Positions 15,761 through 38,704 of a stretch of 38,704 bases of DNA are shown one piece after another. The stretch comes from Terriglobia bacterium. Lineage in GTDB: Bacteria; Acidobacteriota; Terriglobia; UBA7540. The stretch spans positions 1-38,704 of the forward strand of contig JAIQGA010000008.1 in NCBI GenBank assembly GCA_020072925.1, in the 5' to 3' direction. The stretch's first letter is position 1. Each line of letters starts with the position of its first letter. The notes beneath the pieces were generated by a model that had not been told where the DNA came from, ran no database searches, and saw only the letters and a program-made list of their open reading frames with translations. The position numbers and the translations under genes are program-made.

Positions 15761-15767
15761 AAGTCAC

Positions 15768-18700: not shown

Positions 18701-19076
18701 CTTTGATGAGCTCGATCTGCTTTTCCGTCAGTGACCGGCCGGACCACACCGGAGGCATGCGAACGGAATCATCCTTGGAGCTGATCTTCTGGTAGAGCTT
18801 GCTTTGGGCGGAATTGCCCGGAACGATGATGTGATAGCCGCCGCGGTCAACGAACAGGTCTTCGGTCTTATCCAGCCGCAGGTTGGCCATGCGCTGCTTG
18901 CCGTCCGGCCCATGACACTTAAAGCAGGTGTCCGACAAGATGGGGCGAATGTCGCGGTTGAAGTCCACCCGGTTTACGGCCGCTTGCGGAGCCGTCACCG
19001 AGACGGTTTTCGTAGTGTTGAAGAGCCAACCTAGGGAAGCGACAAGGCCCACCGCAAAAAGCACCCGAGACCACAT
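15768..19076 (-). CDS. PSCyt1 - DUF1549 - LamG - DUF1553 cytochrome-domain protein
   Basis: I place the start at ATG 19074-19076 ([19 protein letters not shown], an N-terminal membrane or signal segment) behind AGGGGGG, not at the earlier in-frame start at 19199, whose extra 41 residues are charged. That gives 1102 residues. PSCyt1 carries a heme c motif C51-FK-C54-H55. DUF1549 (about 155-395) ends in a second motif C339-AR-C342-H343. A concanavalin/LamG-like domain covers about 430-640, followed by a highly charged Lys/Glu segment (about 680-720). DUF1553 (about 770-1020) includes the [20 protein letters not shown] region. It is cotranscribed with the DUF1501 gene. Such pairs are expanded in planctomycetes, verrucomicrobia and Solibacter-like acidobacteria and are thought to act on polysaccharides with electron transfer. 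Confidence 0.9.
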
Positions 19077-19378
19077 GCTGGTTGCCCCCCTGGAAAGTTG
19101 TGCACGCCCTGTGCTGCCTGAAATATACCTAAATTCCGGCCGCAAGTCCAATCCCACTTTCCTTTCTCCCAATCCGTCGATGGCGCCTGGCAACTCCACG
19201 GGAGGTGGGGACGATCCAGCGCTGCCCCGCTTTTCGAATCAGCGACCATCATTGTATCGCGCATGCGCAAGCCGAAAGTGCCGACCCACCGGCGCCACGC
19301 TCGATAGCCCGAGGCCGGCGGTCACCTTGCGTCAGTGCGACGGGTAGCGGGAAATTATCGCACTTTCAAAGGGGGTGA
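19077..19378. other. intergenic, leader of PSCyt1 gene
   Basis: No gene supported. The 41 codons upstream of the chosen start stay open but look non-coding. The Ndh gene ends at 19379, also on the - strand, so this stretch must contain its terminator region and the promoter for the cytochrome-domain gene lies upstream of 19076. No clear boxes seen. Confidence 0.35.
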
Positions 19379-22728: not shown

Positions 22729-25029
22729 ATGAGTTCCCCACTGGCACACAAGAGCTCGAACGCAACAGGGTCGGGCAGGGTCGATCCGCAATCAGCAGGC
22801 GGATCGGAGTACACCTGTCCGATGCACCCGGATGTCCGCCAGAAACGTCCCGGTACGTGCCCCAAGTGTGGCATGACGCTCGAGCCGGTGAGCCCTGCCG
22901 CTCCTGCAGCCAAGACGGAATACGTTTGCCCAATGCATCCGGAGATCGTGCGCTCGGAGCCGGGTTCGTGCCCTATCTGCGGGATGGCCCTGGAACCCAA
23001 AACCGTTTCCGCTGAGGAAGAAAGGAGTCCGGAGCTCAAGGCGATGACCCGGCGTTTTTGGGTGGGACTGGTTCTGACGATTCCCGTTTTGGCCTCTGCC
23101 ATGGGAAAGTACATCCCTGGGAACCCCATCCCGAAATGGGCGTCCGAGCACTTCTGGACCTGGTTTGAGCTAGTGCTGGCTACCCCAGTGGTCCTCTGGG
23201 GCGGCTGGCCGTTCTTCGTGCGCGGATGGCGGTCCATCGTCAATCGCAGCCTGAACATGTTCACGTTGATCGGGCTGGGCGTGGGCGTCGCCTATCTATA
23301 TAGCTTTGTCGCAGCGCTCTTCCCTGAAATCTTTCCCGCAGCATTCCGCGACGCAGCCGGCTCAGTTGCCGTGTACTTTGAGGCTGCGGCGGTGATTACG
23401 ACGCTGGTTCTTTTGGGCCAAGTGCTGGAACTCCGCGCCCGCAGCCAGACCGGTGCAGCCATCAAGTCGCTGCTGGGGTTGGCTCCAAAGACTGCCCGGC
23501 TGATTCAGGAAGACGGCACAGAGGGAGACGTGCCTCTTGATCGCGTCAAGCCGGGCGACCGCCTCCGCGTCCGCCCGGGTGAGAAGGTCCCGGTGGATGG
23601 AGTGGTGCTCGAGGGACGCAGCAGCGTGGACGAGTCCATGATCACGGGCGAACCCATTCCGGTTGAAAAGGAGGCTGGCGACCGGGTGACAGGAGCAACC
23701 GTCAACGGCACGGGCACGCTCATCATGCGGGCGGAGCGTGTCGGCGCGGAGACCCTGCTGGCACAGATTGTGCGAATGGTTGCGGAAGCACAGCGCAGCC
23801 GCGCTCCAATTCAAAAGCTGGCCGACGTCGTTGCCGGCTACTTTGTGCCCATTGTGGTTTTGATTGCTGTTCTGACCTTCGTTGTTTGGGCGATATGGGG
23901 GCCGAGCCCTCGCATGGCGCACGCGTTGATCAATGCTGTTGCAGTTCTCATCATCGCCTGTCCGTGCGCGCTGGGATTGGCGACGCCAATGTCTATCATG
24001 GTGGCGACGGGCAAAGGTGCCACGGTGGGTGTTTTGTTCAAGAACGCAGAAGCGATCGAACACATGCGCAAGGTGAACACCTTGGTGGTGGACAAGACCG
24101 GGACGCTCACCGAAGGCAAGCCGAAGCTGGTAGCCGTAGAGACGGTTGATCCCTTCGACAGAGGAAAGCTGATCCATCTGGCTGCCAGTCTGGAACGGGG
24201 CAGCGAGCATCCGCTCGCGGCCGCGATTGTGGCGGGTGCGGAATCTCAGGCAGTTGTGCTGTCGCCTGTCGAAGAGTTTGAGAGTCTGACTGGGAGAGGG
24301 GTGCGAGGACGCGTGGACGGCATGCAGATCGCCCTCGGAAACCGGAAGCTCCTGGAAGAGCTCCAAATCAACTCAACCAGGATGCTCGATCGCGCTGAGG
24401 CGATGCGGGGCGAAGGCCAGACCGTGATGTTTGTGGTCGTGGATGGCAAAGCGGCTGGCATGGTCGGTGTGGCCGACCCGATTAAGGGAACCACTTCGGA
24501 GGCCATCCAGCAACTGCACGCTGATGGCATTCGGGTCGTGATGTTGACAGGTGATAGCCGCACGACCGCGCAGGCCGTGGCCAAGAGGCTTGAAATCGAC
24601 GAAGTGATTGCCGAAGTTCTGCCCGAGGACAAGGCCGGCGTAGTGAAGAAACTCCAGGAAGGAGGACGCTTCGTGGCCATGGCGGGAGACGGTATTAACG
24701 ACGCGCCGGCCCTTGCCCAGGCGCAAGTCGGCATCGCCATGGGCACGGGGACAGATGTGGCGATGGAAAGCGCCGGAGTGACGTTGGTCAAAGGCGACTT
24801 GCGCGGTATAGTTCGGGCGCGCATGCTGAGTCGGGCCACGATGCGTAACATCAAGCAGAATCTCTTTTTCGCCTTTATCTATAACGCCATCGGCGTGCCT
24901 ATCGCGGCGGGCGTGCTCTATCCACTCTTCGGTTTGCTGCTCAGCCCCGTCATCGCGGCAGCCGCCATGAGTTTCAGTTCGGTCTCTGTGGTCACCAACG
25001 CCCTGCGCCTTCGCGGCGCACGCGTGTAA
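22729..25029 (+). CDS. copA: copper-translocating P-type ATPase (P1B-1) with two metal-binding repeats
   Basis: The protein has 766 residues and its ATG is preceded by AAGGAGGG. Two N-terminal heavy-metal-binding repeats, C30-PMHP with C44-xx-C47 and C67-PMHP with C81-xx-C84, replace the usual HMA domains. Then come the actuator loop T306-G-E, the ion-binding motif C411-P-C413, the phosphorylated aspartate in D455-KTGTLT, the HP motif SEHPLAAAI and the hinge [10 protein letters not shown]. Late membrane motifs YNAIGVP and MSFSS fit Cu(I) specificity. It should export copper from the cytoplasm. It follows the small metal-locus genes in the same direction and is followed by an MFS exporter. There is no visible copper regulator gene in the window. 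Confidence 0.92.
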
Positions 25030-26604: not shown

Positions 26605-27625
26605 GAGAGTTTTTAATTTAGGTGTATACATTTATGTGCGATAATGCCTCTGCCAATAAAGGGGAGGCAAAGATGCAATCCTATTCACAGGACTTGCGGG
26701 ACCGGGTGTTATGGGCATTGGATCGGGGAGAACGTCCGACAGCGATTGCGCGGCGGCTGGAAGTCAGCCGCGTTTGGGTTTACCAGGTTCGGGGACGGGA
26801 GCAGAAGACAGGCCAGCGTACCAGCTTTCCAATCGGCGGCCATCGCCGTTCGCGGGTAGCGGGGTTGGAGCCCGTGCTGCGTGCCTGGATCGAACAGGAG
26901 CCGGGTCTGAGCTTGGCCGAGTTATGCCAACGTCTGGTGGGGCAGGGCGTATCGATCAAGATCGGTGCCTTGTGGCATCAATTGAACCAATGGAATCTTA
27001 CCTTCAAAAAAAACCCTGCACGCCAGCGAGCAAGAGCGCGAGGACGTGCAGCAGGCGCGCAGCGCGCGGCGGCAAGCATTGCCCACGAGGGAAGTCGAAA
27101 AGCTCGTGTTCATCGATGAAACGTGGACATCGACCAGCCTGACGCGCCGCTATGGACGTGCGCCCAGAGGGAGGCGCTGCCTCGACGCAGCGCCGCACGG
27201 GCATTGGGAGACAACGACCTTTGTGGGCGCTCTGCGCCGGCGCCGATTGACCGCGCCGATGGTCACCGACGGGCCCCTGGACGGTGAGATGTTTCTGGCT
27301 TACGTGCGTCAATGCCTGTGCCCAACGCTCCAACCCGGAGACACCGTGATCCTCGACAACCTCAGCAGTCACAAGGTGGCGGGAGTCGCGGAAGCGATCA
27401 CCGCGACCGGAGCCATCGTCCTCTTTCTGCCCCCGTACTCTCCGGATCTGAACCCGATAGAAAAGTTCTTTTCCAAACTCAAGGCGCGGCTCCGCCAAGC
27501 CGCGCAACGCGATATCGATGCTCTCTGGAAGGAAATCGGGGAGTTGCTCAATACGGTCTCCCCAAGCGAATGCACAAACTACTTTGCCTCTTGCGGATAT
27601 GTATGCACTTAAATCAAAATCGCTC
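26605..27625 (+). mobile_element. IS630-family insertion sequence, complete
   Basis: The left terminal repeat (26605-26631) and the right one (27599-27625, reverse strand) match at 22 of 27 positions. Each is flanked outside by the dinucleotide TA (26603-26604 and 27626-27627), the target duplicated by IS630/Tc1-type elements. The element is 1021 bp and holds one transposase split by a frameshift. It lies between the MFS gene and a broken histidine kinase. Confidence 0.85.
26673..27612 (+). CDS. IS630 transposase, two frames joined at an A8 run
   Basis: I choose ATG 26673, behind GGGGAGGC; the earlier in-frame start at 26622 overlaps the terminal repeat. Frame 1 gives the helix-turn-helix half (SYSQDLRDRVLWALDRGERP, ARRLEVSRVWVYQV) up to NQWNLTFKK. 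Homology then continues in the +1 frame (TLHASEQEREDVQQARS) into the DDE half: VFIDETW, VILDNLSSHK and SPDLNPIEKFFSKLK hold the three acidic residues. The switch falls on eight A's (27006-27013). Reading one A fewer gives a continuous protein of about 312 residues. IS630 elements often use programmed slippage here, so this may be an active enzyme and not a broken one. Confidence 0.85.
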
Positions 27626-27659: not shown

Positions 27660-28336
27660 GGGGTGGCGCGGCCACCGCGTTCACCATCGTGTCGTATGGA
27701 TTTTGCCACAGTCTTGCCAAGGCGGGCTGTTCGTCCGCCTCCGCGAAGGCTCACGGCTTTGGTGGTCTCATTCAAAGGGCTTCGGAATTGGCGAGTGCAG
27801 CCGATTTCCGGGTGTGTGTTGGGCGGGGGGAAGCTGAGCCGGACCCGGGTGCCCTTTCAAGGGGAACTGGTGAGATGGAACTCACCGCCCAGTTTCTCGA
27901 CTCTCTCGCGCATGCCGATCAAGCCATAGTGATGGCCATCCGGCGAGCGGCAGGTGGACGGCTCAAAGCCGCATCCCTCATCTTCGATCTCCACGTGCAG
28001 GCAGTGGTGATCGAAAGTCAAAACGACTGCGATGTTCTTGGGCGCGGCGTGCGTGACGGCGTTCTGGATGGCCTCACGAACGAGCATGAGCAGGCTCCAT
28101 TCGCCTTCGGGGCCCAGCGCCTGCGGCGCGCCGACACTCCTCAGCTTCACAGGAATCCCCGTTTCCACGCTAATCCGCTGGGCGAGTTGGGAACCCGCGG
28201 TTTCCGGCACGCCAAGGAGTCGTGGGCTTCCCGACGACGAGGGTAACGCTTTGCCGGTCATGACCGTGTTCGACAAGGACACTCCCCACTGACAGCGCCG
28301 AGTCCTTTGAGCACAACGCGCTACACCCGCAAGCAT
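27660..28336 (-). pseudogene. NarL/LiaS-type histidine kinase, C-terminal remnant with nonsense codon
   Basis: The frame from 28336 encodes the ATPase half of a cytoplasmic sensor kinase: QRISVETGIPVKLRSVG, LMLVREAIQNAVTHA (N-box), VEIEDEGCGFEP (G1), HYGLIGMRERVEKLGG (G2). At 27857-27859 a TGA stands where the family has glycine in ...SSPGKGT, and the same frame continues as KGTRVRLSFPPPN, so one base change (GGA to TGA) cut the last strand. The N-terminal sensory and dimerisation parts are absent or scrambled before about 28250. It is next to the IS630 right end. Confidence 0.75.
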
Positions 28337-28440: not shown

Positions 28441-30282
28441 TTAGGGTGGCGCTGGCAGCGGCTGAGTTGTTATCAAGTACTTTCCCCCGCTCTCTTTGAC
28501 AATATGGAGCGCCGAGGGTCCGAGTAACTCCCGCAAACGGGGCAGATCTCCACCTCCCGCCAATAGGTAATATCCCCCCCCGCTGGTCCACAATTTCTTA
28601 AGGTCCGCATCGTCTATGAATACATGCGGCGCGCCCGGAGCGTACGAACCGTATTCCAGGTTAGTTTTCCGTCCGTTCCAAAGCAACGCTTGACGGTTTG
28701 TGTAAAAGAAAACAGACGAAAAGCTGTAATAAGCGTCCGCCTCGACCAACTTCCCTCCGGGCTCGGTCATGAGCGCATCCGCTAAGGGCTTCGATCCGAG
28801 GTAAGAGTCAAAAGCTACCATAGCCAGTCGCGCTGCATGAAAGAAGACCACCATCATGCACGCGGCGGCGAGGAACGCCCGGTGCGGGTTCTCCCGCCAC
28901 ACCCAAAGACCCGCCGCACCGATGAACACCGCGATTCCTGCCAACAGGAGGGGAGACTGCAAGTAGGCGAAGCCCCTCAGAGTCAGGTCTCCAATGTGCC
29001 CCAACGAGAAAGTGTACAACTCCGGGTGCTGCCGGAGTGCCACGGAGATGTCTCCTGGCGTGGGCATGCCTCGAACTTTGAGAAGGATTATGGCAATGAC
29101 GGCCAGGGCGGCTGCGGCGGTCCCGCCTATGAGCAAGGTTCCGCGCCGAACCCACGGGTCGTCCTCCGTCATGGCTGATCCGAGCAACAGCGCCAGGGCA
29201 GGATACGCCGGCATGGAGTAATACTCCTGGGTGGTGGAGAGGGTAAAAAACACCATGACAACGCCGAACCAACACAGCGCCAGCAGGCGCGCGCGGCCCG
29301 CTCGGTCAACCGGTTTGTAGCGCAGCCGCGCGGCCGCGGGAAAATAGAAGCTCCACGGAAAGAGCCAGACCAGTTGAAGCAGCCAGAACCAGAGCCTGGG
29401 CACGGTGTTGTAATCGCGCGGATAGCGCAGGTTCAGAAATCGCAGCACATGCTCGTTGATGAAGTAAAACCAAAAAAAACCGCGGTACTCGCCGGGCGCG
29501 CTGTGCATCGTGAAGTCAAAGAAGGGCGGATTGCGCAGCGTGGCCAGCACGTGCCAGGGAGCTGCGAGCAGCGCCACGATCAACAAGCCCGATAAGGGGC
29601 AGAGTTTTTTCCAAGTGTCGCGCAAGAACAGTTGCCGCGTGGCGGCCAGGTAAACGAACCCCGCGCCCGCAGGGAACACGAGCGCTACCAGGCCCTTGAG
29701 CAGCAGGCCGGCTCCAACGCTCGCGGCCATTACGGCCGCCCAAAGCCGCGGATGCACCTCCTCGGGATCCAGGACGCGCAAGAACGACCAGAGCATCAAG
29801 GTGATGGTGAGCGTGAGGGTGGCGTCAGGGATGAGAATGCGTGTAAACAGAAACAACCCGATACAGGTGCTCAGCACAAGGCCGGAGTACAGTCCGGCTC
29901 TGGTTCCGAAAGCCCACGCCCCAAACCGTCCGGTCACCCAGCACAAAGCGATCACCGCAAGCGCCAGGGGTAGACGCGCACTCCAATCGTGGACGCCCAA
30001 GAGGCGAAACGAGGCCGCCATCATCCAGTAGACCAGCGGAGCTTTTTCCAGGTAGGCAATCCCGTTCATGTGCGCCGTGACCCAATCACCTGAGGCCAAC
30101 ATGTTGCGGGCGATTTGTGCCTGCACCGCATCCACATCATCCATCAGATGGGGCGGACTGAAAATGCAGCCGAGAAAAATCGCGGAGGCGAAGACGACGA
30201 TGGTCAGGTCGGCAAGGGAACGTTGAGGAGTTCTTGCTCGTTCCTGCCTTCTTCGGCTAATGGGCCGGTCTGAATCTTCCAT
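28441..30282 (-). CDS. GT39 / ArnT-like lipid-linked glycosyltransferase
   Basis: From ATG 30282 the protein has 613 residues; the frame is open to 30462 and an ATG at 30318 is also possible. It overlaps the end of the amidotransferase gene by 79 bases. The first loop after span 1 carries the acidic motif MDDVDAVQAQIARNM and then GIAYLEKAPLVYWMMA, the signature of ArnT/PMT-type enzymes that use polyprenyl-phosphate sugars. About twelve membrane spans follow (ALAVIALCWVTGRF, LWFWLLQLVWLFPWSFYFP, YSMPAYPALALLLG), with a soluble C-terminal domain (about 510-613). Such enzymes move a sugar from undecaprenyl phosphate to a lipid or protein at the outer face of the inner membrane. Acceptor unknown; the neighbourhood suggests a lipid. 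Confidence 0.8.
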   Translation of the reverse strand: MEDSDRPISRRRQERARTPQRSLADLTIVVFASAIFLGCIFSPPHLMDDVDAVQAQIARNMLASGDWVTAHMNGIAYLEKAPLVYWMMAASFRLLGVHDWSARLPLALAVIALCWVTGRFGAWAFGTRAGLYSGLVLSTCIGLFLFTRILIPDATLTLTITLMLWSFLRVLDPEEVHPRLWAAVMAASVGAGLLLKGLVALVFPAGAGFVYLAATRQLFLRDTWKKLCPLSGLLIVALLAAPWHVLATLRNPPFFDFTMHSAPGEYRGFFWFYFINEHVLRFLNLRYPRDYNTVPRLWFWLLQLVWLFPWSFYFPAAARLRYKPVDRAGRARLLALCWFGVVMVFFTLSTTQEYYSMPAYPALALLLGSAMTEDDPWVRRGTLLIGGTAAAALAVIAIILLKVRGMPTPGDISVALRQHPELYTFSLGHIGDLTLRGFAYLQSPLLLAGIAVFIGAAGLWVWRENPHRAFLAAACMMVVFFHAARLAMVAFDSYLGSKPLADALMTEPGGKLVEADAYYSFSSVFFYTNRQALLWNGRKTNLEYGSYAPGAPHVFIDDADLKKLWTSGGGYYLLAGGGDLPRLRELLGPSALHIVKESGGKYLITTQPLPAPP

Positions 30283-32123
30283 CTTTTGATCCAAAGGAAA
30301 AGTATCATCAGGCCCCATAAGTGATAACCGAAATTGGCCCGCCTTTCCATATGGTTGCGAAGGAGTTTTTGCACCCCCTCCCAGCGGAACAACTGGGTCC
30401 GATTGACCGCGCCTTCCGTGAGGGTGTCGAGCAAGAGCCCCTTGAGCGCGCCGCGAAACCACTCATGCGCGGGTATGTCGAAGCCGATTTTCTTCCGGCG
30501 CAGAATGGAAGGCGGGAGCTTGCCTTTCATCAGTTCGCGCAACACGAACTTAAGGGTCGAGCCGCGCACCTTGAAATTTTCCGGCAGTGACGCGGCAAAC
30601 TCCACGATGCGGTGGTCGAGAAAAGGCGGACGCACTTCGACCGAATGGGCCATGCTCATGCGGTCGACCTTGTAAAGAATATCGTCGGGGAGGTAGTAGC
30701 GCTGGTCGAATATCAAGTACCTGCTGAGTCCAGGCTCCTGCGGCAATTTTTCAAGGAGGCGGCGCAGGGGCTGAGGGTTTGTTCTGAGAAAGAAGCCTTC
30801 CTTTTCGGACTCTGTGAAGGCGCCGTTCCAGAAGACGTGAGCATCTTCTTCAGGCATCAACGAGCCCTGCAGAAACCGCTTCAACATGTACTCAAAGCTG
30901 ATCTTGTCGTCCGAAACCGGCCAGCGGCGTGCCAAGGCCAGCGCTCTCTTTCGCACGCTGAGTGGGAGGCGTCGAAACCACCGCGCATAGCGATCCGCGA
31001 GGTACGTAAGGTATCCCCCGAACAGTTCATCCGCGCCCTCGCCGGACAGCGCCACCGTCACGTGCCGGCGACTCATTTCGGCCAGGAACCAAACCGGCAG
31101 CGCGCCCGCATCGGCACTGGGTTCGTCGGAGTAATAGGCGAATTTCTCAATGGCGCTCGGCAAGTCCAGGTCGGTATTGAGGTCGAATTCCCAGTGTTCG
31201 GTGCCGTAACGCTCGGAGATTTGCCGGATGTACGGGCTCTCATCGAAGGTTCGTCCATGGAAAGTGATGGCGAGCGTCTTGAGCGGCGGCGTGGAGGCTT
31301 CTGCGGCGTAATGGAGGATCGTCGAGGAATCCAGCCCCCCGCTGGCCCAAATGCCTAAAGGCACATCGGAAATCAAGTGCTCCCGCACCGACTGGCGCAA
31401 CAAAGAATCGAGTTCTTCCTTCGCCGAGCCCAAGCTCCGGCGTACCGGCGCACGAGCCTCCAATCGCCAGTACGCCTCCGTTCGAGTTCTCCCGTCCAGC
31501 CACTCCAGGACGTGCCCGGGTGGAAGCTTTTCAATGCCCTCCACGAGCGTATGCGGGGCGGGTACATAATTAAGGCATAGGTAGCAGTTCAGCCCATCGA
31601 GGTTGATCCGCCGCCGGACTTCGGGATGTTCGAGAATGGCTTTCAGTTCCGAGGCGAAATACAGGTCGGTTCCCGCGCGGAAATAATACAAAGGCTTGAT
31701 GCCCAGACGGTCGCGCGCCAGTACTAAGCGCTTCCGGGACTCGGTCCAGAGGGCGAGGCCAAACATTCCTCTCAGTCGCGAGAAGCATTGAATGTCCCAC
31801 TCGCAAAAGGCTTGCAGCACCACTTCGGTATCGCAGCGCGTGACGAATTGGTGGCCGCGTGACTGCAGTTCCTCGCGGATTTCTGCGTAATTGTAAATTT
31901 CTCCGTTGAACACGATGATGGTATCGTTGTCATTGCTGTGCAGGGGTTGCCCGCCGGAAAGGAGGTCGATGATTTTCAGGCGGACGGCACCCAGGGAGAC
32001 GTGGGCAGATTCGTAGATGCCTTGCTGATCAGGGCCTCGGTGCACTAAAGAGTGAGTAGCACGGCGGATGCAGTCGCTGACCAAGACACCGTTCCTATGA
32101 GTAAAGCCGGCAATGCCACACAA
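30204..32123 (-). CDS. asnB: glutamine-dependent amidotransferase, asparagine synthase type
   Basis: The longest frame reaches 32207, but the N-terminal nucleophile cysteine must be residue 2. Starting at TTG 32121-32123 gives (M)CGIAGFTHR behind a GGAGG nine bases upstream, so the protein is 639 residues. The glutaminase domain holds IIVFNGEIYNYAEIREELQ and CDTEVVLQAFCEWD. The synthetase domain holds the PP-loop ASGGLDSST and the VALSGEGADELFGGYL region. Family members outside asparagine synthesis amidate sugars or lipids, and this one sits directly upstream of an ArnT-like transferase with overlapping reading frames. It could place an amino or amide group on the glycan made by the neighbouring genes; plain asparagine synthesis is equally compatible with the sequence. 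Confidence 0.85.
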   Translation of the reverse strand: MCGIAGFTHRNGVLVSDCIRRATHSLVHRGPDQQGIYESAHVSLGAVRLKIIDLLSGGQPLHSNDNDTIIVFNGEIYNYAEIREELQSRGHQFVTRCDTEVVLQAFCEWDIQCFSRLRGMFGLALWTESRKRLVLARDRLGIKPLYYFRAGTDLYFASELKAILEHPEVRRRINLDGLNCYLCLNYVPAPHTLVEGIEKLPPGHVLEWLDGRTRTEAYWRLEARAPVRRSLGSAKEELDSLLRQSVREHLISDVPLGIWASGGLDSSTILHYAAEASTPPLKTLAITFHGRTFDESPYIRQISERYGTEHWEFDLNTDLDLPSAIEKFAYYSDEPSADAGALPVWFLAEMSRRHVTVALSGEGADELFGGYLTYLADRYARWFRRLPLSVRKRALALARRWPVSDDKISFEYMLKRFLQGSLMPEEDAHVFWNGAFTESEKEGFFLRTNPQPLRRLLEKLPQEPGLSRYLIFDQRYYLPDDILYKVDRMSMAHSVEVRPPFLDHRIVEFAASLPENFKVRGSTLKFVLRELMKGKLPPSILRRKKIGFDIPAHEWFRGALKGLLLDTLTEGAVNRTQLFRWEGVQKLLRNHMERRANFGYHLWGLMILFLWIKRWKIQTGPLAEEGRNEQELLNVPLPT

Positions 32124-32138
32124 GACCGGCAGCCTCCT
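32121..32138 (-). promoter_or_regulatory. ribosome binding site deciding a TTG start of asnB
   Basis: Read on the - strand: AGGAGGCTGCCGGTCTTG. The GGAGG core is nine bases from the TTG that precedes the catalytic TGT (Cys2). The upstream ATG of the longer frame has no such site and would bury the nucleophile. Confidence 0.75.
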
Positions 32139-32658
32139 TTGTTTTCGCTTCCCAACTTGTGCCCTTTCCTCCAGAGCCCGAGCGTGCAAGCTCCGAGTAC
32201 GCAGCAAGAGCCTTGATGGGGCGGGTCAAATTCAAGCTGCTTCCCGAAAGGTCTGAGATGGAATTCGGGTCAAACGGAAAATCGATCCAAGGGGACTTCT
32301 AATTCAGGCCTCGTCCGCGCGCCGATTATAGGCGGCCCCCGCTCCCATTTCAAGCTTAACGAGGGTCGCACAAGAGAGTACTCGATGGGTTCAAAGAGGC
32401 TCGTGTGCTTCGCGCCGCCCGGTTCCACTTCGGGGCCGGCGTCGGGCCCGAGAGAGCCCCCCACGCGCGTGGCGGAGGAGGGGGTAAATTCTCGGGGCGT
32501 AATGGCCAGTCCCGTAACGTCTGGGTATGCCTAAGCTACGGGCTCTCGTCTTGCTCTCGTCTTGATTAGCCTCGGGGCCTGTTTGATGCCACAATATGAA
32601 ACTCGGCGTCAGGAAGAGGGAGCGTTAGCAGGTTCTGTCAAGGGGCCGGGCAACGGGG
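32124..32658. other. divergent promoter region asnB / hpnK
   Basis: About 535 bases between divergent genes. Visible features: a perfect palindrome CCACGCGCGTGG at 32461-32472 and a tandem 11-base repeat GCTCTCGTCTT at 32542-32563. Either could be a regulator site for the two transcription units. No gene is supported here. Confidence 0.45.
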
Positions 32659-33570
32659 ATGAGAAGGCTGATTGTCAATGCGGATGACTTCGGGCTGACG
32701 ACAGAGGTTAACCAGGCAATCATCGATGGACATTGCCGCGGTCTGATCAGCAGCGCAAGCCTGTTGGCCAACGGCGAAGCCTTCGAATCTGCGGTGGCCC
32801 TGTCGCGCCAGGCGCCGCGCCTCGGCATTGGGGTCCATTTGAATCTTACCGAAGGTAAACCTGTCGCTCTGACTTCCAGCATTCCGAGCCTCGTTGAGGG
32901 ACAAGACTCTTTCGCGAGAACACCGGGAAGCCTCTGGCGAGCGATTATCTTGAGGCGAGTGAGTGTGGCCGATATCGAGAAAGAACTGCGCGCACAGATC
33001 GAAAAAGTTGTGGCCGCCGGCATGGTACCCACTCATCTGGATAGTCACAAGCACGTGCACGCGCTGCCGGTCCTTGGGAAGATGAGCATCGGGCTTGCCC
33101 GCGAGTATGGCATCCCGGCAATCCGCTGTGTGGTTGAGCGCTGGCCCCCCTTAAGTCACTTACTACGGCGTTATCCCCGCGCTGCCCCGACGATCCTCCG
33201 GCAACGTCTTGCCAGTTTTACGCTTGCTGTTATGTCCAGAGGATGGAGGCGCCAACTCCGGGGGGCCGGTGTTGCCTGCGCCTCGCATTTCTATGGCCTC
33301 ACACCCACGGGGTTCCTGGATGCGGAGATTCTGGGCGAGATCCTTTCTCACCTCCCCGACGGAACGAGCGAGTTGATGTGTCATCCTGGTCATGTCGATA
33401 ATGCTCTGAGACGAACGCCGACGCGTCTGCTGGGGCAACGGGAGATGGAGTATCAAGCCCTGACTCGGCCGGCTATGAAGCTCATGCTACAAGATCTCGG
33501 CATCCAGCTTGTTAATTACCGAGACATGGTCTGTTCGAGGCAGGCTGGGGCAGTCCGGGAGGAAAGCTGA
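32659..33570 (+). CDS. hpnK: HpnK / ChbG-type carbohydrate deacetylase
   Basis: The protein has 303 residues. YdjC/ChbG fold landmarks: LIVNADDFGLT with metal-ligand aspartates D9/D10, GIGVHLNLTEGKPV, H126-LDSHKH-V-H134 with the metal-binding histidines, and the late LMCHPGHVDN. In the hopanoid pathway HpnK removes the acetyl group from the N-acetylglucosamine that HpnI attaches to bacteriohopanetetrol. The presence of hpnI- and hpnJ-like genes a few kilobases away supports this over chitooligosaccharide deacetylation. It is first in a + strand pair with a GT2 gene (87-base gap). Confidence 0.85.
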   Translation: MRRLIVNADDFGLTTEVNQAIIDGHCRGLISSASLLANGEAFESAVALSRQAPRLGIGVHLNLTEGKPVALTSSIPSLVEGQDSFARTPGSLWRAIILRRVSVADIEKELRAQIEKVVAAGMVPTHLDSHKHVHALPVLGKMSIGLAREYGIPAIRCVVERWPPLSHLLRRYPRAAPTILRQRLASFTLAVMSRGWRRQLRGAGVACASHFYGLTPTGFLDAEILGEILSHLPDGTSELMCHPGHVDNALRRTPTRLLGQREMEYQALTRPAMKLMLQDLGIQLVNYRDMVCSRQAGAVREES

Positions 33571-33657
33571 ATCCGAACTGGCGATTGGCATGCGCTGGGC
33601 GGGAAAGCCGGGCGAGGAGCAGGGCGGACGCGAAGACGTTGGATTGCGAGTACCTTC

Positions 33658-34707
33658 ATGAATGACCGTCAGTCAGGCCAGACAATTTCTATTGTCGTGC
33701 CTCTGTACAACGAGCAGGAAAGCGTTCGCCTACTGTACACGCGCCTCAGCGAGGCGCTTTCTCGACTAAAACAAGCATACGAACTCATCTTTGTGGATGA
33801 CGGGAGTCGGGATCAGACACCCGGCATCCTGGATGAGATCTACGAGAAGGACAGCCGCGTGTGCATCGTTCGGCTAAGGAGGAATTTCGGCCAAGCGGCA
33901 GCTCTGCAGGCCGGATTTGACTTTTGCCAGGGCGACATCATCATCTCCATGGACGGGGATCTTCAACATGACCCGGAGGACATCCCGCAGTTCCTTAACA
34001 AAATGGCGGAAGGCTACGATATTGTCAGCGGTTGGCGGGTGGCCAGGAAAGATCCGTGGCTCACGCGTCGCCTGCCTAGCCGCGTCGCCAACTGGCTGAT
34101 GGCGAAACTGTCGGGTATCCCGCTGCACGATTTCGGCACAACCTTCAAAGCCTACCGGCCCGAAATCATTCAGAACATTCAACTATACGGCGAACTGCAT
34201 CGGTTCATTCCAGCCCTGGCAAGCTGGTCGGGAGCAACGATCACGGAGATCCCGATCAAGAATGCCATTCGTGAAAAGGGCAGGTCGCATTATGGACTAT
34301 CCAGAACCGTCAGAGTTCTGCTCGACCTGATCAGCATTAAGTTCCTGCTCGACTATTCCACCCGGCCTTTGCATTTCTTCGGGCTTCTGAGCCTGCTCAG
34401 CCTGGGTCCCGGGACCGTCATCGGGTTCTTCCTCCTCTATGAGAAGCTCTTTCTCCGCAAGGAAATAATGTTCGAACACGGACCTCTCATATTCGCAGCG
34501 GTGCTGTTTTTTCTGGCGGGCATCCAATTCCTCTCCGTAGGCCTCATCGGAGAGATGCTTTCACGCACGTACTACGAATCCCAAAAGAAGCCCATTTATA
34601 CGCTGCGAGAAACCAAAAGCCGCAGGCGAGAAGCAGCGTTGAGACCGGAGCCAAAAGAGGCAGTCCCCGCCGCCGGGCGCCAGCCGTTCGAGCGCATTGG
34701 CAAGTGA
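33658..34707 (+). CDS. GT2 polyprenyl-phosphate glycosyltransferase (ArnC/DPM1-like)
   Basis: The protein has 349 residues. The GT-A domain starts SIVVPLYNEQESVRLLYTRL, with the nucleotide-sugar DD at D47/D48 (FVDDGSRDQTP), D99-G-D101 metal site (SMDGDLQHDPEDIP) and FGTTFKAYRPEI. Two C-terminal membrane spans (PLHFFGLLSLLSLGPGTVIG, LIFAAVLFFLAGIQFLSVGL) and the tail SRTYYESQKKPIYTLRE are standard in ArnC/GtrB/DPM1-type enzymes that transfer a sugar from a nucleotide donor to undecaprenyl phosphate. It is paired with hpnK and could make the lipid-linked donor used by the ArnT-like enzyme encoded about 3.4 kb away. Confidence 0.88.
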   Translation: MNDRQSGQTISIVVPLYNEQESVRLLYTRLSEALSRLKQAYELIFVDDGSRDQTPGILDEIYEKDSRVCIVRLRRNFGQAAALQAGFDFCQGDIIISMDGDLQHDPEDIPQFLNKMAEGYDIVSGWRVARKDPWLTRRLPSRVANWLMAKLSGIPLHDFGTTFKAYRPEIIQNIQLYGELHRFIPALASWSGATITEIPIKNAIREKGRSHYGLSRTVRVLLDLISIKFLLDYSTRPLHFFGLLSLLSLGPGTVIGFFLLYEKLFLRKEIMFEHGPLIFAAVLFFLAGIQFLSVGLIGEMLSRTYYESQKKPIYTLRETKSRRREAALRPEPKEAVPAAGRQPFERIGK

Positions 34708-34890
34708 ATCAAGGACCCAGCAAGAAGCGATCCGCTGGCAATTCCCGGATGCTCCGACCATCTTCCGGGGTGACCCTGATATGGCGCGCGTCTGGAATGA
34801 GCGTGGGTAGGATAATCCTCGATATACCCCGGGACCGGAACGCCCGACTGGAACGAGTGTCCGCCAGCCGCTTTAGATGTCGCCTGAAGT

Positions 34891-36147
34891 TCAGGGACGG
34901 TGATTTAAAGTAACCGACCGCGATGACGAGTGCTGCGTCCCGCTGTCCGATGGCTTTGGGGCGGAGGAGAGCGGACCAGACTTGCGTGTCATTTTCCCGC
35001 CCGCTTCGAGCTTGTAATGCTCGCCTCGCCACACAATCTTGGTCCCGAAAAAGCTGGCACACCACAGGAAGAATCCCAGCAGGTCCCGTGCCGGATAAAG
35101 CCAGCAGAACCACAGTGAACGCGAGTCACGAAGCACTCCCCATCCTACAGCTATGGATTGGACAACACGGTTTAGGACTGCCAGGCTCAGAAGTCCGAAG
35201 CCCAGCCTCCAACTTCCCATGGCGATGCATGCTGCCATCCCGAGCAGGCCGAAAGGCATGGCGAAAGTCATAACGGTGCCAACGTGACCCAGCGGACGGG
35301 AAAAGCGAGTACTCTTCATCCAGCGAAGCTGGTGAAGCCACGACGCTCGTGCGGACCGGTGCAGCGCAACGTGGTCAATCACATGGCGGGAGAGCACGAC
35401 CTTCTTCCCAGTTGCGTACGTAAGCTGACCTAGGACGAAATCATCAGAACAATAGGCGCCGAGCGCCTCGATTCCGCCCAGGCTGGCCAGAACCTCCTTC
35501 CTTGTGGCCATGCCCGGCCCAAGGGCAAACCTCATGCCCTCGAGGAATTCCGCCACAAGCACTCCGGACGTCAATTCCACCGACATCCCTAACGCCTCGA
35601 GCCTGGACCACAACCCTCCGGTGGGCACACCACGATAGATACAGGTTACCAGCCCGACGCTCGAATCCAGGAGCGGAGGGACGACCTGCCGGATAAAGTC
35701 GGAAGCAACATGCACATCGCTGTCAGTGATTACGAGATACGGAAAGGATGCCGCCGCCACCATCCTTTCCAGGGCGTACACCTTGGCATTGGGGTAAGCA
35801 GGCTCGCCGGAGAGGATAATTCTTGTCTTGATTCCCGGATGTTTTTGCTGAAGCGTCTCCACCACCTGCAGCGCCGGATCGCTGCTATTTCGAGCGCCAA
35901 ATATCAATTCGAAACTGGGGTAATCCTGCCGGAAGAAACTCTCCAGATTCTCTTCCAAGAGTGGCTCCATCCCATGCAGGGGCTTCAAGATGGCCACGGG
36001 GGGCAGCACCACGCCGCCATCACACGAGGGGGGTGTTTCGGGAAGTGTGAAGCGGAAGCGCAGACCGGCAATCAGCGCCAAGAGCAGATAGACTGCGGAC
36101 GATAGAAGTCCGGCCAGCGCCAGGAAAAGCACGATTCGTCCGACCAT
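34891..36147 (-). CDS. hpnI: HpnI-like glycosyltransferase, copy A
   Basis: The protein has 418 residues; ATG behind GGGAGG. An N-terminal span VLFLALAGLLSSAVYLLL precedes a ceramide-glucosyltransferase (GT21)-like domain: VAILKPLHGMEPLLEENLES, SFELIFGARNSSDPAL, VITDSDVHVASDFIRQVV, and the Q-x-x-R-W motif HQLRWMKSTRFSR. Three C-terminal membrane spans and a basic Ser-rich tail follow. HpnI adds N-acetylglucosamine to bacteriohopanetetrol. It lies 68 bases after copy B on the same strand and is the last gene of the operon with hpnJ. The two copies share the fold and motifs but differ widely elsewhere, so they may use different sugars or acceptors. Confidence 0.82.
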   Translation of the reverse strand: MVGRIVLFLALAGLLSSAVYLLLALIAGLRFRFTLPETPPSCDGGVVLPPVAILKPLHGMEPLLEENLESFFRQDYPSFELIFGARNSSDPALQVVETLQQKHPGIKTRIILSGEPAYPNAKVYALERMVAAASFPYLVITDSDVHVASDFIRQVVPPLLDSSVGLVTCIYRGVPTGGLWSRLEALGMSVELTSGVLVAEFLEGMRFALGPGMATRKEVLASLGGIEALGAYCSDDFVLGQLTYATGKKVVLSRHVIDHVALHRSARASWLHQLRWMKSTRFSRPLGHVGTVMTFAMPFGLLGMAACIAMGSWRLGFGLLSLAVLNRVVQSIAVGWGVLRDSRSLWFCWLYPARDLLGFFLWCASFFGTKIVWRGEHYKLEAGGKMTRKSGPLSSAPKPSDSGTQHSSSRSVTLNHRP

Positions 36148-36215
36148 CTACTCGCCTCCCAGAAGAGGCTCACCATCACGAGAACAGAAGTCAAGCCCTG
36201 GAAGCTCTGCGGGGC

Positions 36216-37394
36216 TTATGCCTTCGCTTCTGAGACGTTCCCTTGACGCATGATAATTGGGACCAGCCGTCCCTTGCGCACGTAAAACTTGCTTCCGCGC
36301 CAGTTAATGCGGTTGCAGCCGAAGCTGAGCAGCCAAATAAGAAATCCCAGCGCGTCGCTGAGAGGTAGAAGCCATAGTCTCCTCTGTAACGACTGGTCTC
36401 GCAGTCCCCACACGCCGACCGTCCAAGCCATGGCCAGGCGCAAAACAAGATAAGCGCTTAGATAACCCGCGGCCGTGGAGGCGGAATGGCCTACCGCTAT
36501 GGCTGCCAACGACCAAGGAAGCCCCTGGGCTAACAGCCAGCCGAGATGCCCTCCCGGACGTGAATGCCGCAGGCCAATCGCCCAGCGCAATTGCTGCTCG
36601 AAGAACTCCTTTGCGGTGCGCGAGGGGCACACGGTTTGCACCGTGTAGGGCGAAAGCTCGACTCGATATCCGCGCGCGGCAACGCGCCGGCCTATCTCGA
36701 AATCATCCGAAGCAAAATCGGCGAGCGACTCAAACCCGCCAATCTCGTCTAGTCGCTTGCGGGTGATCGCGATTGTGGCGCCCAGGCTGAATCTCACCCC
36801 TTCCATCCGCCGCGCCACCAGCACTCCGCCCAAGAAGCTCGAAGTGAGATTCACGGCCTCCAGTTCCGACCACACAAAAGGGTCGGCCAATCCCCGGTAC
36901 ATGCAAGTGACCGCGCCCACTTGGGGGTCCCGGAAGGGGGAGACGATGCTCGCCAGGTAGCTGGGACCCACGCGGATGTCGCTGTCGCTGATCACCAGCA
37001 GGTCAAACTGCGCTTCGTGCACCAACCGACAAAGCCGGTTGACCTTGTCATTCGAGCCGAGGTTCTCGGAGCCAATCAGCAGACGAATAGGCAGCTCAGG
37101 GAAATCCCGGATCACCTCCCGGATAGCAGGAATAGAGGGATCCTGGTCGTTGGCAACACCAAACAGGATTTCGTATCTCGGGTAGTTCTGTCGGCAGAAA
37201 CTGGCAAAATTCTCGTACGCTTCACGGTCCAAACCGCGTATGGGCTTCAGGATGCTGACCGCAGGCGCGAAGTCATCAGGGTTTTCGCCCCGATTTCTGA
37301 AAAATCGCCAGGCGCAGTAGATTGCCGCTAAGTAGTATACAAAGGGCAGAACAGCCCCCACGAGAACTGTCCACTTCAGCACGGTCGGAAGCAC
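36216..37394 (-). CDS. hpnI: HpnI-like glycosyltransferase, copy B
   Basis: The protein has 392 residues, starting at GTG 37394 behind GGAAGG; the nearby ATG is out of frame. Motifs parallel copy A: VSILKPIRGLDREAYENFAS, YEILFGVANDQDPSIP, LVISDSDIRVGPSYLASIV and EQQLRWAIGLRHSR, with an N-terminal span and several C-terminal spans. It is twelve bases behind the SMR gene, in the tight hpnJ operon. Like copy A it belongs to the ceramide-glucosyltransferase-like family. Which of the two is the true GlcNAc-transferase cannot be decided from sequence alone. Confidence 0.82.
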   Translation of the reverse strand: MLPTVLKWTVLVGAVLPFVYYLAAIYCAWRFFRNRGENPDDFAPAVSILKPIRGLDREAYENFASFCRQNYPRYEILFGVANDQDPSIPAIREVIRDFPELPIRLLIGSENLGSNDKVNRLCRLVHEAQFDLLVISDSDIRVGPSYLASIVSPFRDPQVGAVTCMYRGLADPFVWSELEAVNLTSSFLGGVLVARRMEGVRFSLGATIAITRKRLDEIGGFESLADFASDDFEIGRRVAARGYRVELSPYTVQTVCPSRTAKEFFEQQLRWAIGLRHSRPGGHLGWLLAQGLPWSLAAIAVGHSASTAAGYLSAYLVLRLAMAWTVGVWGLRDQSLQRRLWLLPLSDALGFLIWLLSFGCNRINWRGSKFYVRKGRLVPIIMRQGNVSEAKA

Positions 37395-37406
37395 ATGATC
37401 CTTCCC

Positions 37407-37775
37407 TTATCGGGTGCACACTACCGCAACCCCAATGCAGACCAGTAATATGCCTGCCCAGCGCTCGGGGCCCAAACGCTCGCCCAGCAGAATCTTGGCG
37501 CCCAGCGCGCCGACGACATAACTGAGTGCCGTTGCGGGGACCACAAAGCTGACATCTGCCCATGAAAGCAAGGCCAGAAGGGAGAAAAATGCCAGCGCCA
37601 TCAGCGCAAGGCCCACCCACAGCCATCCCAACCGGAAGGCACGCCCGAGGACGCCGAGGACAGCGCGAGGAGCGAAGTCTTTCACCTCGCCGATTCGCTT
37701 CATGGCGTGGGTTGCGGCGATCTCTCCGCCAGTCCCGGCGAACACAACAATGGCCAGAAATATGAAAGTGCGCAT
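37407..37775 (-). CDS. small EamA/SMR-type membrane protein (ArnE/F-like), second of pair
   Basis: The protein has 122 residues from ATG 37775, behind GGGGCGGGG; a TTG at 37781 would overlap the stop of the previous gene by two bases (TTGA). It has four membrane spans (FIFLAIVVFAGTGGEIAATH, LWVGLALMALAFFSLLALL) and the core motif SWADVSFVVPATALSYVVGA, then LLGERLGPERW and a last span. Such half-size DMT proteins work as dimers. ArnE/ArnF pairs carry undecaprenyl-phosphate-aminoarabinose across the inner membrane. Immediate coupling with its sister gene points to a heterodimer. Confidence 0.75.
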   Translation of the reverse strand: MRTFIFLAIVVFAGTGGEIAATHAMKRIGEVKDFAPRAVLGVLGRAFRLGWLWVGLALMALAFFSLLALLSWADVSFVVPATALSYVVGALGAKILLGERLGPERWAGILLVCIGVAVVCTR

Positions 37776-37777
37776 GT

Positions 37778-38194
37778 TCAACCCCGCCCCGTCGTGCTAG
37801 GTGGCGTACGGCCCACTATGGCCACCCCTAGACAAATGAACGCTACCCCTACCCAGTGTCGTAACGTTACCGCTTCTCCGAGCAGATAATGACCCAGTAG
37901 CGGTACCAGGGCGTAGCCGGCGGCCGCCGCGGGCATGACGTAGCTGTAATCAGCCCAGGAAAGTACCAGCAAGTAGGACACGAAAAACAGCATGAGGCAG
38001 CCGATCCCCAGCCAGACCCAAACACTGCTGAAAGTTCTGACGAAGTAAATGCCCAGAATGTCGAGTGACCAGCCCGGAGTCTCGCCCATCTGCCGCATCC
38101 CCTTGGCGAGCAGGACGTTTCCCACTGAGTTGAAAACCGCCACAAGAAGCACCAGGACACAGGTTTTCAGGAGCAGGCTTTTCGAGGAGGCCAT
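37778..38194 (-). CDS. small EamA/SMR-type membrane protein (ArnE/F-like), first of pair
   Basis: The protein has 138 residues from ATG 38194 (MASSKSLLLKTCVLVLLVAV); the frame is open up to 38359 but that part overlaps the end of hpnJ and is arginine-rich, non-membrane sequence. Four spans and the same motif as its sister, SWADYSYVMPAAAAGYALV, then LLGEAVTLRHWVGV. The start is ten bases after the hpnJ stop, and its own stop lies two bases before the sister's ATG. This indicates tight co-translation of hpnJ and the two transporters. Substrate is unknown; a lipid-linked sugar is the natural guess from context. Confidence 0.75.
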   Translation of the reverse strand: MASSKSLLLKTCVLVLLVAVFNSVGNVLLAKGMRQMGETPGWSLDILGIYFVRTFSSVWVWLGIGCLMLFFVSYLLVLSWADYSYVMPAAAAGYALVPLLGHYLLGEAVTLRHWVGVAFICLGVAIVGRTPPSTTGRG

Positions 38195-38204
38195 GGGGAT
38201 ACGC

Positions 38205-38704
38205 TTAGTTGCCGGACTCCGGGCGCGAGCGGGAATCGGTAATTGGCCCAGCAACCGCACGCGTCCGCGAGGACGCCTTCCGCGCGTACTTCCACCTTTC
38301 TGTGCGCAAGCGAAGAAACTCGACGGCTTCGTGGTAGAGGCGCTTGCGTTCATGCGCATTCCAGACCGCCTTGCGCACGATGCGCCAGATCACGTGGGGG
38401 CGGAAGTAGTATGAATCGTAGAAGCGGTTGACCGCAGCCATCATTTCTTCACGCCCGAGCCACGGATAGTCGAGATGCGGCAATTGGTGGCCTTGCATAT
38501 CGACAAGCGCCTCACTCGCGAGGACATTGTTCCGCTGAGCGTAGTCGTACAGCTCGGTTCCCGGGTAGGCGTGGGCGACCGAAACCTGAATCGTCTCTAC
38601 GTCGAGTTCCTTGGCGAAGGCGATCGTGTTCTTGATGGTGTCGCGGGTCTCTCCCGGCAGGCCGAGAATGAAATCTCCGTGGACCACCAGCCCCAGCTTG
38701 TGGA
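38205..38704 (-). CDS. hpnJ: HpnJ-like radical SAM protein, C-terminal part (runs off window)
   Basis: The last 166 residues are visible; the N-terminus with the CxxxCxxC iron-sulfur cluster lies beyond the window. Seen: HGDFILGLPGETRDTIKNTI (strand with GxxGE-like SAM-binding pattern), VETIQVSVAHAYPGTELYDY, then QGHQLPHLDYPWLGREEMMA and a basic helical C-terminus (RFYDSYYFRPHVIWRIVRKA). These match the hopanoid protein HpnJ, which contracts the glucosamine ring to the cyclitol ether of bacteriohopanetetrol. It is the first visible gene of the operon with the SMR pair and two HpnI copies. A B12-binding domain could lie in the unseen part. Confidence 0.8.
   Translation of the reverse strand, partial: HKLGLVVHGDFILGLPGETRDTIKNTIAFAKELDVETIQVSVAHAYPGTELYDYAQRNNVLASEALVDMQGHQLPHLDYPWLGREEMMAAVNRFYDSYYFRPHVIWRIVRKAVWNAHERKRLYHEAVEFLRLRTERWKYARKASSRTRAVAGPITDSRSRPESGN

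What the first reader, a model, noticed from the sequence alone, without database searches (positions are those of the whole stretch)
28441..38704. Hopanoid HpnI-J-K enzymes combined with an Arn-like carrier, flippase and transferase set
Seen: HpnJ, two small SMR proteins, two HpnI, HpnK, GT2, GT39 and an amidotransferase in about 10 kb, in three transcription units. Known: HpnI/K/J build bacteriohopanetetrol cyclitol ether; ArnC (GT2), ArnE/F (small SMR pair) and ArnT (GT39) load, flip and attach a sugar on lipid A, with ArnD as a deacylase step. Inference: the region may build an aminated sugar on a polyprenyl or hopanoid carrier, flip it, and transfer it outside, with HpnK acting in the ArnD position. 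This combination is not one I know as a described pathway.
Basis: partly seen in the sequence, partly recalled or inferred. Interest (0 to 1): 0.68.

Follow-up and report, generated by a model that had tools for sequence, protein, structure and literature searches.

The report
Hopanoid and aminosugar lipid gene island
In this soil-type Acidobacteriota genome the genes that build a sugar-decorated, cholesterol-like membrane lipid sit, in a conserved arrangement, beside a pair of small transporter genes that may flip that lipid across the membrane and beside genes that probably make and attach an aminosugar outside the cell, so an unanswered question (how such lipids get across the membrane) becomes testable.

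Summary
The genes are as described, except that "HpnK" is not the HpnK orthologue. The island joins three units, each conserved in many Acidobacteriota. (1) hpnJ-smrA-smrB-hpnI: SMR genes stand in the hpnJ gene run in 72 of 80 sampled hpnJ loci (both genes in 67), also in Myxococcota and Nitrospirota. The Proteobacterial clusters examined carry HpnL, a flippase-like protein of unknown function, beside hpnI-J-K instead. (2) hpnK'-GT2: a YdjC deacetylase clade separate from true HpnK, usually directly followed by an ArnC-like glycosyltransferase, as expected for a NaxD-type step. (3) asnB-GT39: amidotransferase plus ArnT-like transferase; asnB lies within 6 kb of an hpnI gene in 15 of 26 further genomes. 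The units are joined in varying ways in at least five families, so the linkage claim holds. Best reading: the SMR pair is a candidate flippase for the HpnI/HpnJ aminohopanoid; units 2+3 make, deacetylate and transfer a polyprenyl-linked hexosamine, possibly onto the product of the second HpnI, with lipid A the main rival acceptor. No biochemistry is shown. New variant of known kinds; worth testing.

The parts
38205..38702 (-). hpnJ, 3' part only (165 aa; radical-SAM BHT cyclitol ether enzyme); cut by the contig end
   Evidence: TIGR03471 185.6 bits over model positions 333-470
37778..38194 (-). smrA: small SMR/EamA-like membrane protein, Asn at the putative central TM1 position (VGNVLLAKGM)
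   Evidence: Pfam EamA 28.2 bits; NCBIfam ArnE best hit 26.9 bits; alignment of 84 pairs
37407..37781 (-). smrB: second SMR protein, Glu at the same position (GGEIAATHAM)
   Evidence: AlphaFold pLDDT 90.5 and Foldseek EmrE/Gdx-Clo
36216..37394 (-). hpnI1: HpnI-family glycosyltransferase
   Evidence: TIGR03472 355.3 bits over cut-off 310; tree clade with hpnJ/SMR-linked HpnI
34891..36147 (-). hpnI2: second HpnI paralogue, clade linked to GT39 genes
   Evidence: TIGR03472 320.4 bits; clade 100/95
32659..33570 (+). hpnK': YdjC-family deacetylase, not the HpnK orthologue
   Evidence: Pfam YdjC 232.7 bits; TIGR03473 216.9, below 232.6; separate clade
33658..34707 (+). GT2 of the ArnC/GtrB type, polyprenyl-phosphate glycosyltransferase
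   Evidence: ArnC structures 9bhc/8vxh, E 1e-55
30204..32123 (-). asnB-like glutamine amidotransferase (TTG start, Cys2)
   Evidence: TIGR01536 466.8 bits; Cys2 invariant in relatives
28441..30282 (-). GT39, ArnT-like transferase; YLEK motif kept, DDVDA in place of the ArnT DEGRYA stretch; start overlaps the asnB end
   Evidence: 5ezm ArnT, E 1.6e-26; motif alignment
32325..32353 (-). promoter-like site (TTGAAA-17-TATAAT, 11 of 12) upstream of asnB-GT39
   Evidence: consensus scan only; total number of sites near the chance level

Best explanation
The locus is an envelope-glycolipid island of three co-travelling units. Unit 1 (hpnJ-smrA-smrB-hpnI1) is the Acidobacteriota form of the bacteriohopanetetrol (BHT) cyclitol-ether branch: HpnI adds GlcNAc to BHT, a YdjC deacetylase frees the amine, HpnJ contracts the ring (established chemistry for the families), and the SMR heteropair, holding the place that HpnL holds in the Proteobacteria examined, moves the amino-hopanoid to the periplasmic leaflet (inferred). 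Unit 2 (hpnK'-GT2) charges a polyprenyl phosphate with an N-acetylhexosamine and deacetylates it, as NaxD does (inferred); in Terriglobia, where no canonical HpnK was found, HpnK' may also deacetylate BHT-GlcNAc (weaker inference). Unit 3 (asnB-GT39): the ArnT-like GT39 transfers the flipped aminosugar to a periplasmic-face acceptor; AsnB amidates a carboxylate of sugar or acceptor. The acceptor I think most likely is the glycolipid made by HpnI2, hence a composite hopanoid. Shown: gene families, clades, conserved linkage, predicted fold of SMR2. Inferred: every substrate and the order of steps.
For: SMR genes in the hpnJ gene run in 72 of 80 named loci, both genes in 67; in an independent phylum-wide sample of hpnI loci, SMR in 11 of 14 with hpnJ against 5 of 66 without. 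smrA and smrB fall into separate clades following hpnJ across families. Proteobacterial hpnI-J-K clusters carry HpnL (TIGR03476, 328 and 338 bits), as does an Acidobacteriota locus without SMR in weaker form (112 bits, L083). hpnK' and GT2 adjacent on one strand in 27 of 39 loci, mostly overlapping or under 50 bp. One-operon fusions hpnJ-smr-smr-hpnI-hpnK'-GT2 in three genomes of family f4 (L274-L276); AsnB-GT39-LPG_TM-hpnK'-GT2 in relatives of the window's family (L280, L283, L284). asnB-GT39-hpnI2 runs in G409 and G440, and hpnJ/hpnI1 facing hpnI2/GT39/asnB in G469. Same-family relatives have hpnJ-(about 0.94 kb)-hpnI1-hpnI2 with shc 2.6 kb upstream of hpnJ. SHC present in every tested genome of the phylum-sample HpnI1/HpnI2 clades except G000. 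Lipid-type SMR pairs flip undecaprenyl-phosphate-aminoarabinose (PMC9574504).
Against: No enzyme or transport activity was tested anywhere. hpnK'-GT2 (with an LPG_TM gene) also occurs in G738, where HpnI, HpnJ, SHC, HpnH and HpnC were all not found, and G346 holds canonical HpnK as well as hpnK'-GT2: unit 2 does not need hopanoids. SHC and HpnH were not found in the window's own assembly, although HpnC was. In G233, G329 and G370 the SMR pair sits beside asnB(-GT39) and a sulfoquinovose-synthase-like gene with no hpnJ in the fetched stretch (hpnJ lies elsewhere in G329 and G370), which would fit SMR serving GT39. AsnB has no obvious substrate in this scheme. The SMR fold match is by Foldseek probability; E-values are above 0.001.
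Confidence: 0.4

Rival explanations
1. Two independent pathways share an island: unit 1 makes and flips the amino-hopanoid, while hpnK'-GT2-GT39(-AsnB) is a NaxD/FlmF2/FlmK- or LgmABCD-like route that puts a hexosamine on lipid A phosphates, with no chemical contact between the two.
For: YdjC deacetylase + GT2 + ArnT-like GT39 matches the described NaxD route (PMC11279074) and the Bordetella lgmA-D glucosamine locus (PMC11401268). hpnK'-GT2 is often unlinked to hpn genes (L281, L286, L288-L294) and occurs in G738 without detected hopanoid genes.
Against: asnB(-GT39) recurs within 6 kb of an hpnI gene in 15 of 26 genomes, and GT39-hpnI2 runs recur in families f2, f4, f34 and f79; plain lipid A modification would not explain why an HpnI-family gene follows.
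Confidence: 0.37
2. The SMR pair is an ArnE/F analogue: it flips the polyprenyl-phosphate aminosugar made by GT2/HpnK' for GT39, and its place beside hpnJ is incidental.
For: Weak best NCBIfam hits of both SMR proteins are ArnE; in G233 and G329 the pair sits beside asnB-GT39-hpnI without hpnJ; LPG_TM takes a like place in AsnB-GT39-LPG_TM-hpnK'-GT2.
Against: About 70 hpnJ loci carry SMR genes with no GT2/GT39 in the fetched stretch, and SMR presence tracks hpnJ (11 of 14 against 5 of 66).
Confidence: 0.18
3. The genes are a loose collection of polysaccharide-type genes (GT2, GT39, AsnB as in exosortase-associated clusters) near hopanoid genes, with no common function.
For: AsnB scores 527 bits on the XrtA/PEP-CTERM amidotransferase model, below its 817 cut-off; the neighbours of most family f91 asnB-GT39 pairs could not be read.
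Against: Repeated joining of the same units in families f1, f2, f4, f91 and f96.
Confidence: 0.05

Closest known systems
HpnI-HpnK-HpnJ route to BHT cyclitol ether (three steps, Schmerk et al. 2015 as cited in PMC12583986)
   Same: HpnI and HpnJ families and their gene neighbourhood
   Different: SMR pair instead of HpnL; no canonical HpnK here; extra HpnI paralogue
NaxD deacetylase with FlmF2 and FlmK (Francisella lipid A galactosamine)
   Same: YdjC-family deacetylase coupled to a GT2 and an ArnT-like GT39
   Different: Tied to hpn genes and AsnB; acceptor unknown; sequence kinship to NaxD itself not tested
LgmABCD (Bordetella lipid A glucosamine)
   Same: An inner-membrane transferase (LgmB) adds a glucosamine made by a small gene set
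   Different: No hopanoid genes there as far as I know; gene-by-gene comparison not made
ArnBCADTEF (L-Ara4N on lipid A)
   Same: ArnC-like GT2, ArnT-like GT39, SMR pair
   Different: No ArnA, ArnB or ArnD among the genes identified; YdjC deacetylase instead of ArnD; all scores far below the Arn equivalog cut-offs
HpnL (TIGR03476, LPG_synthase_TM, unknown function)
   Same: Position beside hpnI-J-K; putative lipid flippase fold
   Different: Unrelated in sequence to the SMR pair

Membership tests
BHT cyclitol ether branch (HpnI/K/J) | HpnI equivalog | tested here: met
   355 and 320 bits against 310
BHT cyclitol ether branch (HpnI/K/J) | Complete HpnJ | tested here: inconclusive
   Only positions 333-470 before the contig end; most relatives' HpnJ pass the cut-off
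BHT cyclitol ether branch (HpnI/K/J) | Orthologous HpnK | tested here: not met
   217 bits, below 232.6; separate clade, 100/100 and 100
BHT cyclitol ether branch (HpnI/K/J) | Squalene-hopene cyclase and HpnH in the genome | tested here: inconclusive
   Not found in G000, but HpnC found; in three same-family relatives shc lies 2.6 kb upstream of hpnJ, which would fall just past this contig's end
Arn pathway | ArnC, ArnT and ArnE equivalogs | tested here: not met
   213 against 529, 91 against 567, 27 against 92 bits
Arn pathway | ArnA/ArnB sugar synthesis and ArnD | tested here: not met
   None among the genes identified in the window; the rest of the genome was not searched for them
NaxD-type hexosamine route | YdjC deacetylase coupled to a polyprenyl-phosphate GT2 | tested here: met
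   Adjacent pair in 27 of 39 loci
NaxD-type hexosamine route | GT39 transferase in the same locus | tested here: met
   Window, L065, L278, L280, L283, L302
NaxD-type hexosamine route | Activity on undecaprenyl-phosphate-HexNAc | not testable with these tools
   Needs an enzyme assay
NaxD-type hexosamine route | Sequence kinship to NaxD itself | not tested
   No named NaxD sequence was fetched
Lipid-type SMR pair (ArnE/F type) | SMR fold | tested here: met
   AlphaFold pLDDT 90.5; EmrE and Gdx-Clo with probability 1.00, TM 0.5-0.6, E above 0.001; SMR2 only
Lipid-type SMR pair (ArnE/F type) | Two different subunits | tested here: met
   Two clades, one gene of each per locus
Lipid-type SMR pair (ArnE/F type) | Asn in place of the central Glu | tested here: inconclusive
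   smrA Asn or Asp, smrB Asp or Glu at the likely position; alignment to EmrE uncertain by about four residues
HpnL | TIGR03476 match | tested here: not met
   SMR proteins do not match; neighbours in Proteobacteria do

The most novel reading that the evidence does not exclude
A periplasmic GT39 transferase decorates hopanoids: HpnI2 makes a glycosylated hopanoid, the SMR pair (or an HpnL-like protein in other lineages) flips it, and GT39 adds a polyprenyl-borne aminosugar, amidated by AsnB, giving a composite hopanoid finished outside the cytoplasm like lipid A.
Probability: 0.25. Interest if true: 0.82.

Novelty: new variant of a known kind. Interest (0 to 1): 0.6.

Why it matters
As far as the held papers show, no protein is known that moves side-chain hopanoids between leaflets (HpnN carries hopanoids on to the outer membrane) and HpnL has no assigned function (PMC12583986). 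The SMR pair beside hpnJ, with HpnL in the same neighbourhood in the Proteobacteria examined, names two possibly exchangeable candidates that can be tested in a cultivated acidobacterium. It also bears on a stated puzzle: subdivision 1 and 3 Acidobacteria have hpnI and hpnJ but no hpnK and were thought unable to make BHT cyclitol ether (PMC5462960); a second YdjC deacetylase clade present there could fill the step. If GT39 acts on hopanoids, biomarker lipids in soils and sediments may include species not yet looked for.

Tried and rejected
The first genome-contig scan with the single HpnI1 protein found nothing; it was repeated with a HpnJ alignment. I considered joining contig C231 to the window as one hpnJ gene and rejected it: the overlapping stretches differ in sequence. 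I first took G488 for a hopanoid-free genome carrying hpnK'-GT2; the later HpnI/HpnJ searches corrected this, leaving G738 alone. Paper searches for an SMR or other flippase of hopanoids found none; only open-licence papers are held, so this is weak evidence of novelty. The NaxD paper itself is not held.

Full report
What is there. The window is one whole contig (C346) of a 6.5-Mb, 456-contig assembly. From its right end leftwards on the minus strand run hpnJ (3' part), two SMR genes, hpnI1 and hpnI2, closely spaced; convergent to them on the plus strand run a YdjC deacetylase gene and a GT2 gene; then on the minus strand asnB and GT39, which overlap. Family assignments: HpnI1 and HpnI2 pass the HpnI cut-off; the deacetylase does not pass the HpnK cut-off; GT2 is closest to ArnC among solved structures and GT39 to ArnT.

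Unit 1: hpnJ with an SMR pair. I took 80 regions around hpnI genes from a phylum-wide sample and mapped them with profiles built from the window's own proteins. A recurring order appeared: hpnJ-(hpnK)-smr-smr-hpnI. A scan of named genomes with a HpnJ alignment gave 80 loci; 72 have SMR in the hpnJ gene run, 67 of them both genes. These include Myxococcota and Nitrospirota loci. The 80 are the best of 587 matches to an alignment headed by an Acidobacteriota sequence, so the sample leans to that phylum. In the independent hpnI sample, SMR was near 11 of 14 hpnI genes with hpnJ and 5 of 66 without. smrA and smrB form separate clades that follow hpnJ through several families. SMR2 folds as an SMR protein by prediction. 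In Mycetohabitans, Paraburkholderia, Caballeronia and Methylobacterium the hpnI-J-K genes have no SMR pair but a LPG_synthase_TM protein nearby, HpnL by NCBIfam in the two scanned. A like protein follows hpnK in Acidobacteriota locus L083, which has no SMR pair. My inference is that the two membrane proteins do the same job, and flipping a lipid-linked aminosugar is what ArnE/F-type SMR pairs do (PMC9574504).

Unit 2: hpnK'-GT2. A tree of YdjC proteins puts the window's deacetylase in a clade apart from 28 HpnK proteins that include those of Burkholderiaceae and Methylobacterium. Searched over 399 genomes of the class, HpnK'-like proteins are widespread. In 40 fetched regions, 27 of 39 such genes have the GT2 gene next to them on the same strand, mostly overlapping or under 50 bp away. 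G346 holds canonical HpnK in its hpnJ cluster and hpnK'-GT2 elsewhere, and G738, in which HpnI, HpnJ, SHC, HpnH and HpnC were not found, still has LPG_TM-hpnK'-GT2. So this unit has a function of its own. The described NaxD, a YdjC deacetylase acting on undecaprenyl-phosphate-linked GalNAc (PMC11279074), is the best model.

Unit 3: asnB-GT39. In 26 further genomes asnB and GT39 are adjacent and co-directional in 20 by coordinates. An hpnI gene lies within 6 kb of asnB in 15 of the 26.

Fusions. hpnJ-smr-smr-hpnI-hpnK'-GT2 stands as one run in three f4 genomes (L274-L276); L279 has GT39-hpnI2 facing GT2-hpnK'-hpnI-smr; L278 has hpnK'-GT2 beside asnB-GT39-hpnI-hpnJ; L280, L283 and L284, from the window's own family, have asnB-GT39-LPG_TM-hpnK'(-GT2), with a squalene-synthase-like gene next to it in L280 and L283. 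G469 repeats the window's order hpnJ-gap-hpnI1 facing hpnI2-GT39-asnB; the gap, read only as a distance of 958 bp, has the size of an SMR pair. HpnI2 is a separate, supported clade whose members lie near GT39 in families f2, f34 and f79.

Does the organism make hopanoids? SHC and HpnH were not found in the assembly, HpnC was. In three same-family relatives shc lies 2.6 kb upstream of hpnJ, in front of the same hpnJ-gap-hpnI1-hpnI2 order; in G000 that place is just beyond the contig end. An assembly gap is the simplest account, not a proven one. G488, also of family f1, has HpnI and HpnJ without detected SHC, HpnH or HpnC, which I cannot explain.

Mechanism and limits. I commit to: SMR pair as flippase of the HpnI/HpnJ product; hpnK'-GT2 making a polyprenyl-linked hexosamine; GT39 transferring it, AsnB amidating an acid group. 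Which acceptor GT39 uses is the weakest point; hpnI2 linkage favours a hopanoid, the NaxD and Lgm precedents favour lipid A. Substrates are inferred from families throughout; no activity was measured. Many genomes compared are close relatives, so counts are not independent events.

Noticed in passing
G000 contig C231, L011:2-1063 (minus): A second hpnJ 5' part, ending at the contig edge in the same conserved HGDFI-GLPG codons where the window's hpnJ starts, but different in sequence: a paralogue or strain variation.
   Followed up: partly
L078:8214-9431, L123:8405-9622, L124:8146-9480: A UDP-sulfoquinovose-synthase-like gene (508 bits in L078, cut-off 575) between asnB(-GT39) and hpnI in G329, G233 and G370.
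   Followed up: partly
G488: HpnJ and HpnI genes present while SHC, HpnH and HpnC were not found in a 91%-complete assembly; HpnH and HpnC were also not found in its genus mate G485.
   Followed up: partly
26622-27612 (+): Transposase-like gene in two overlapping frames (IS630-type by eye), next to a short histidine-kinase-like fragment at 27857-28336 (minus).
   Followed up: no
14276-19199 (-): DUF1501 gene next to a PSCyt1/PSCyt2/PSD1 gene with a lectin-like domain, a planctomycete-type pair.
   Followed up: no
22729-25029 (+): P-type metal ATPase with heavy-metal binding domains, followed by an MFS gene resembling tetracycline exporters (below the cut-offs shown).
   Followed up: no
L137: A Scytonema (cyanobacterial) MAG locus with hpnJ, two hpnK genes and hpnI, no SMR pair found.
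   Followed up: no
L132:9531-10994: Lawsonia plasmid radical SAM protein, 34% identical to HpnJ, among methyltransferase and GT2 genes.
   Followed up: no
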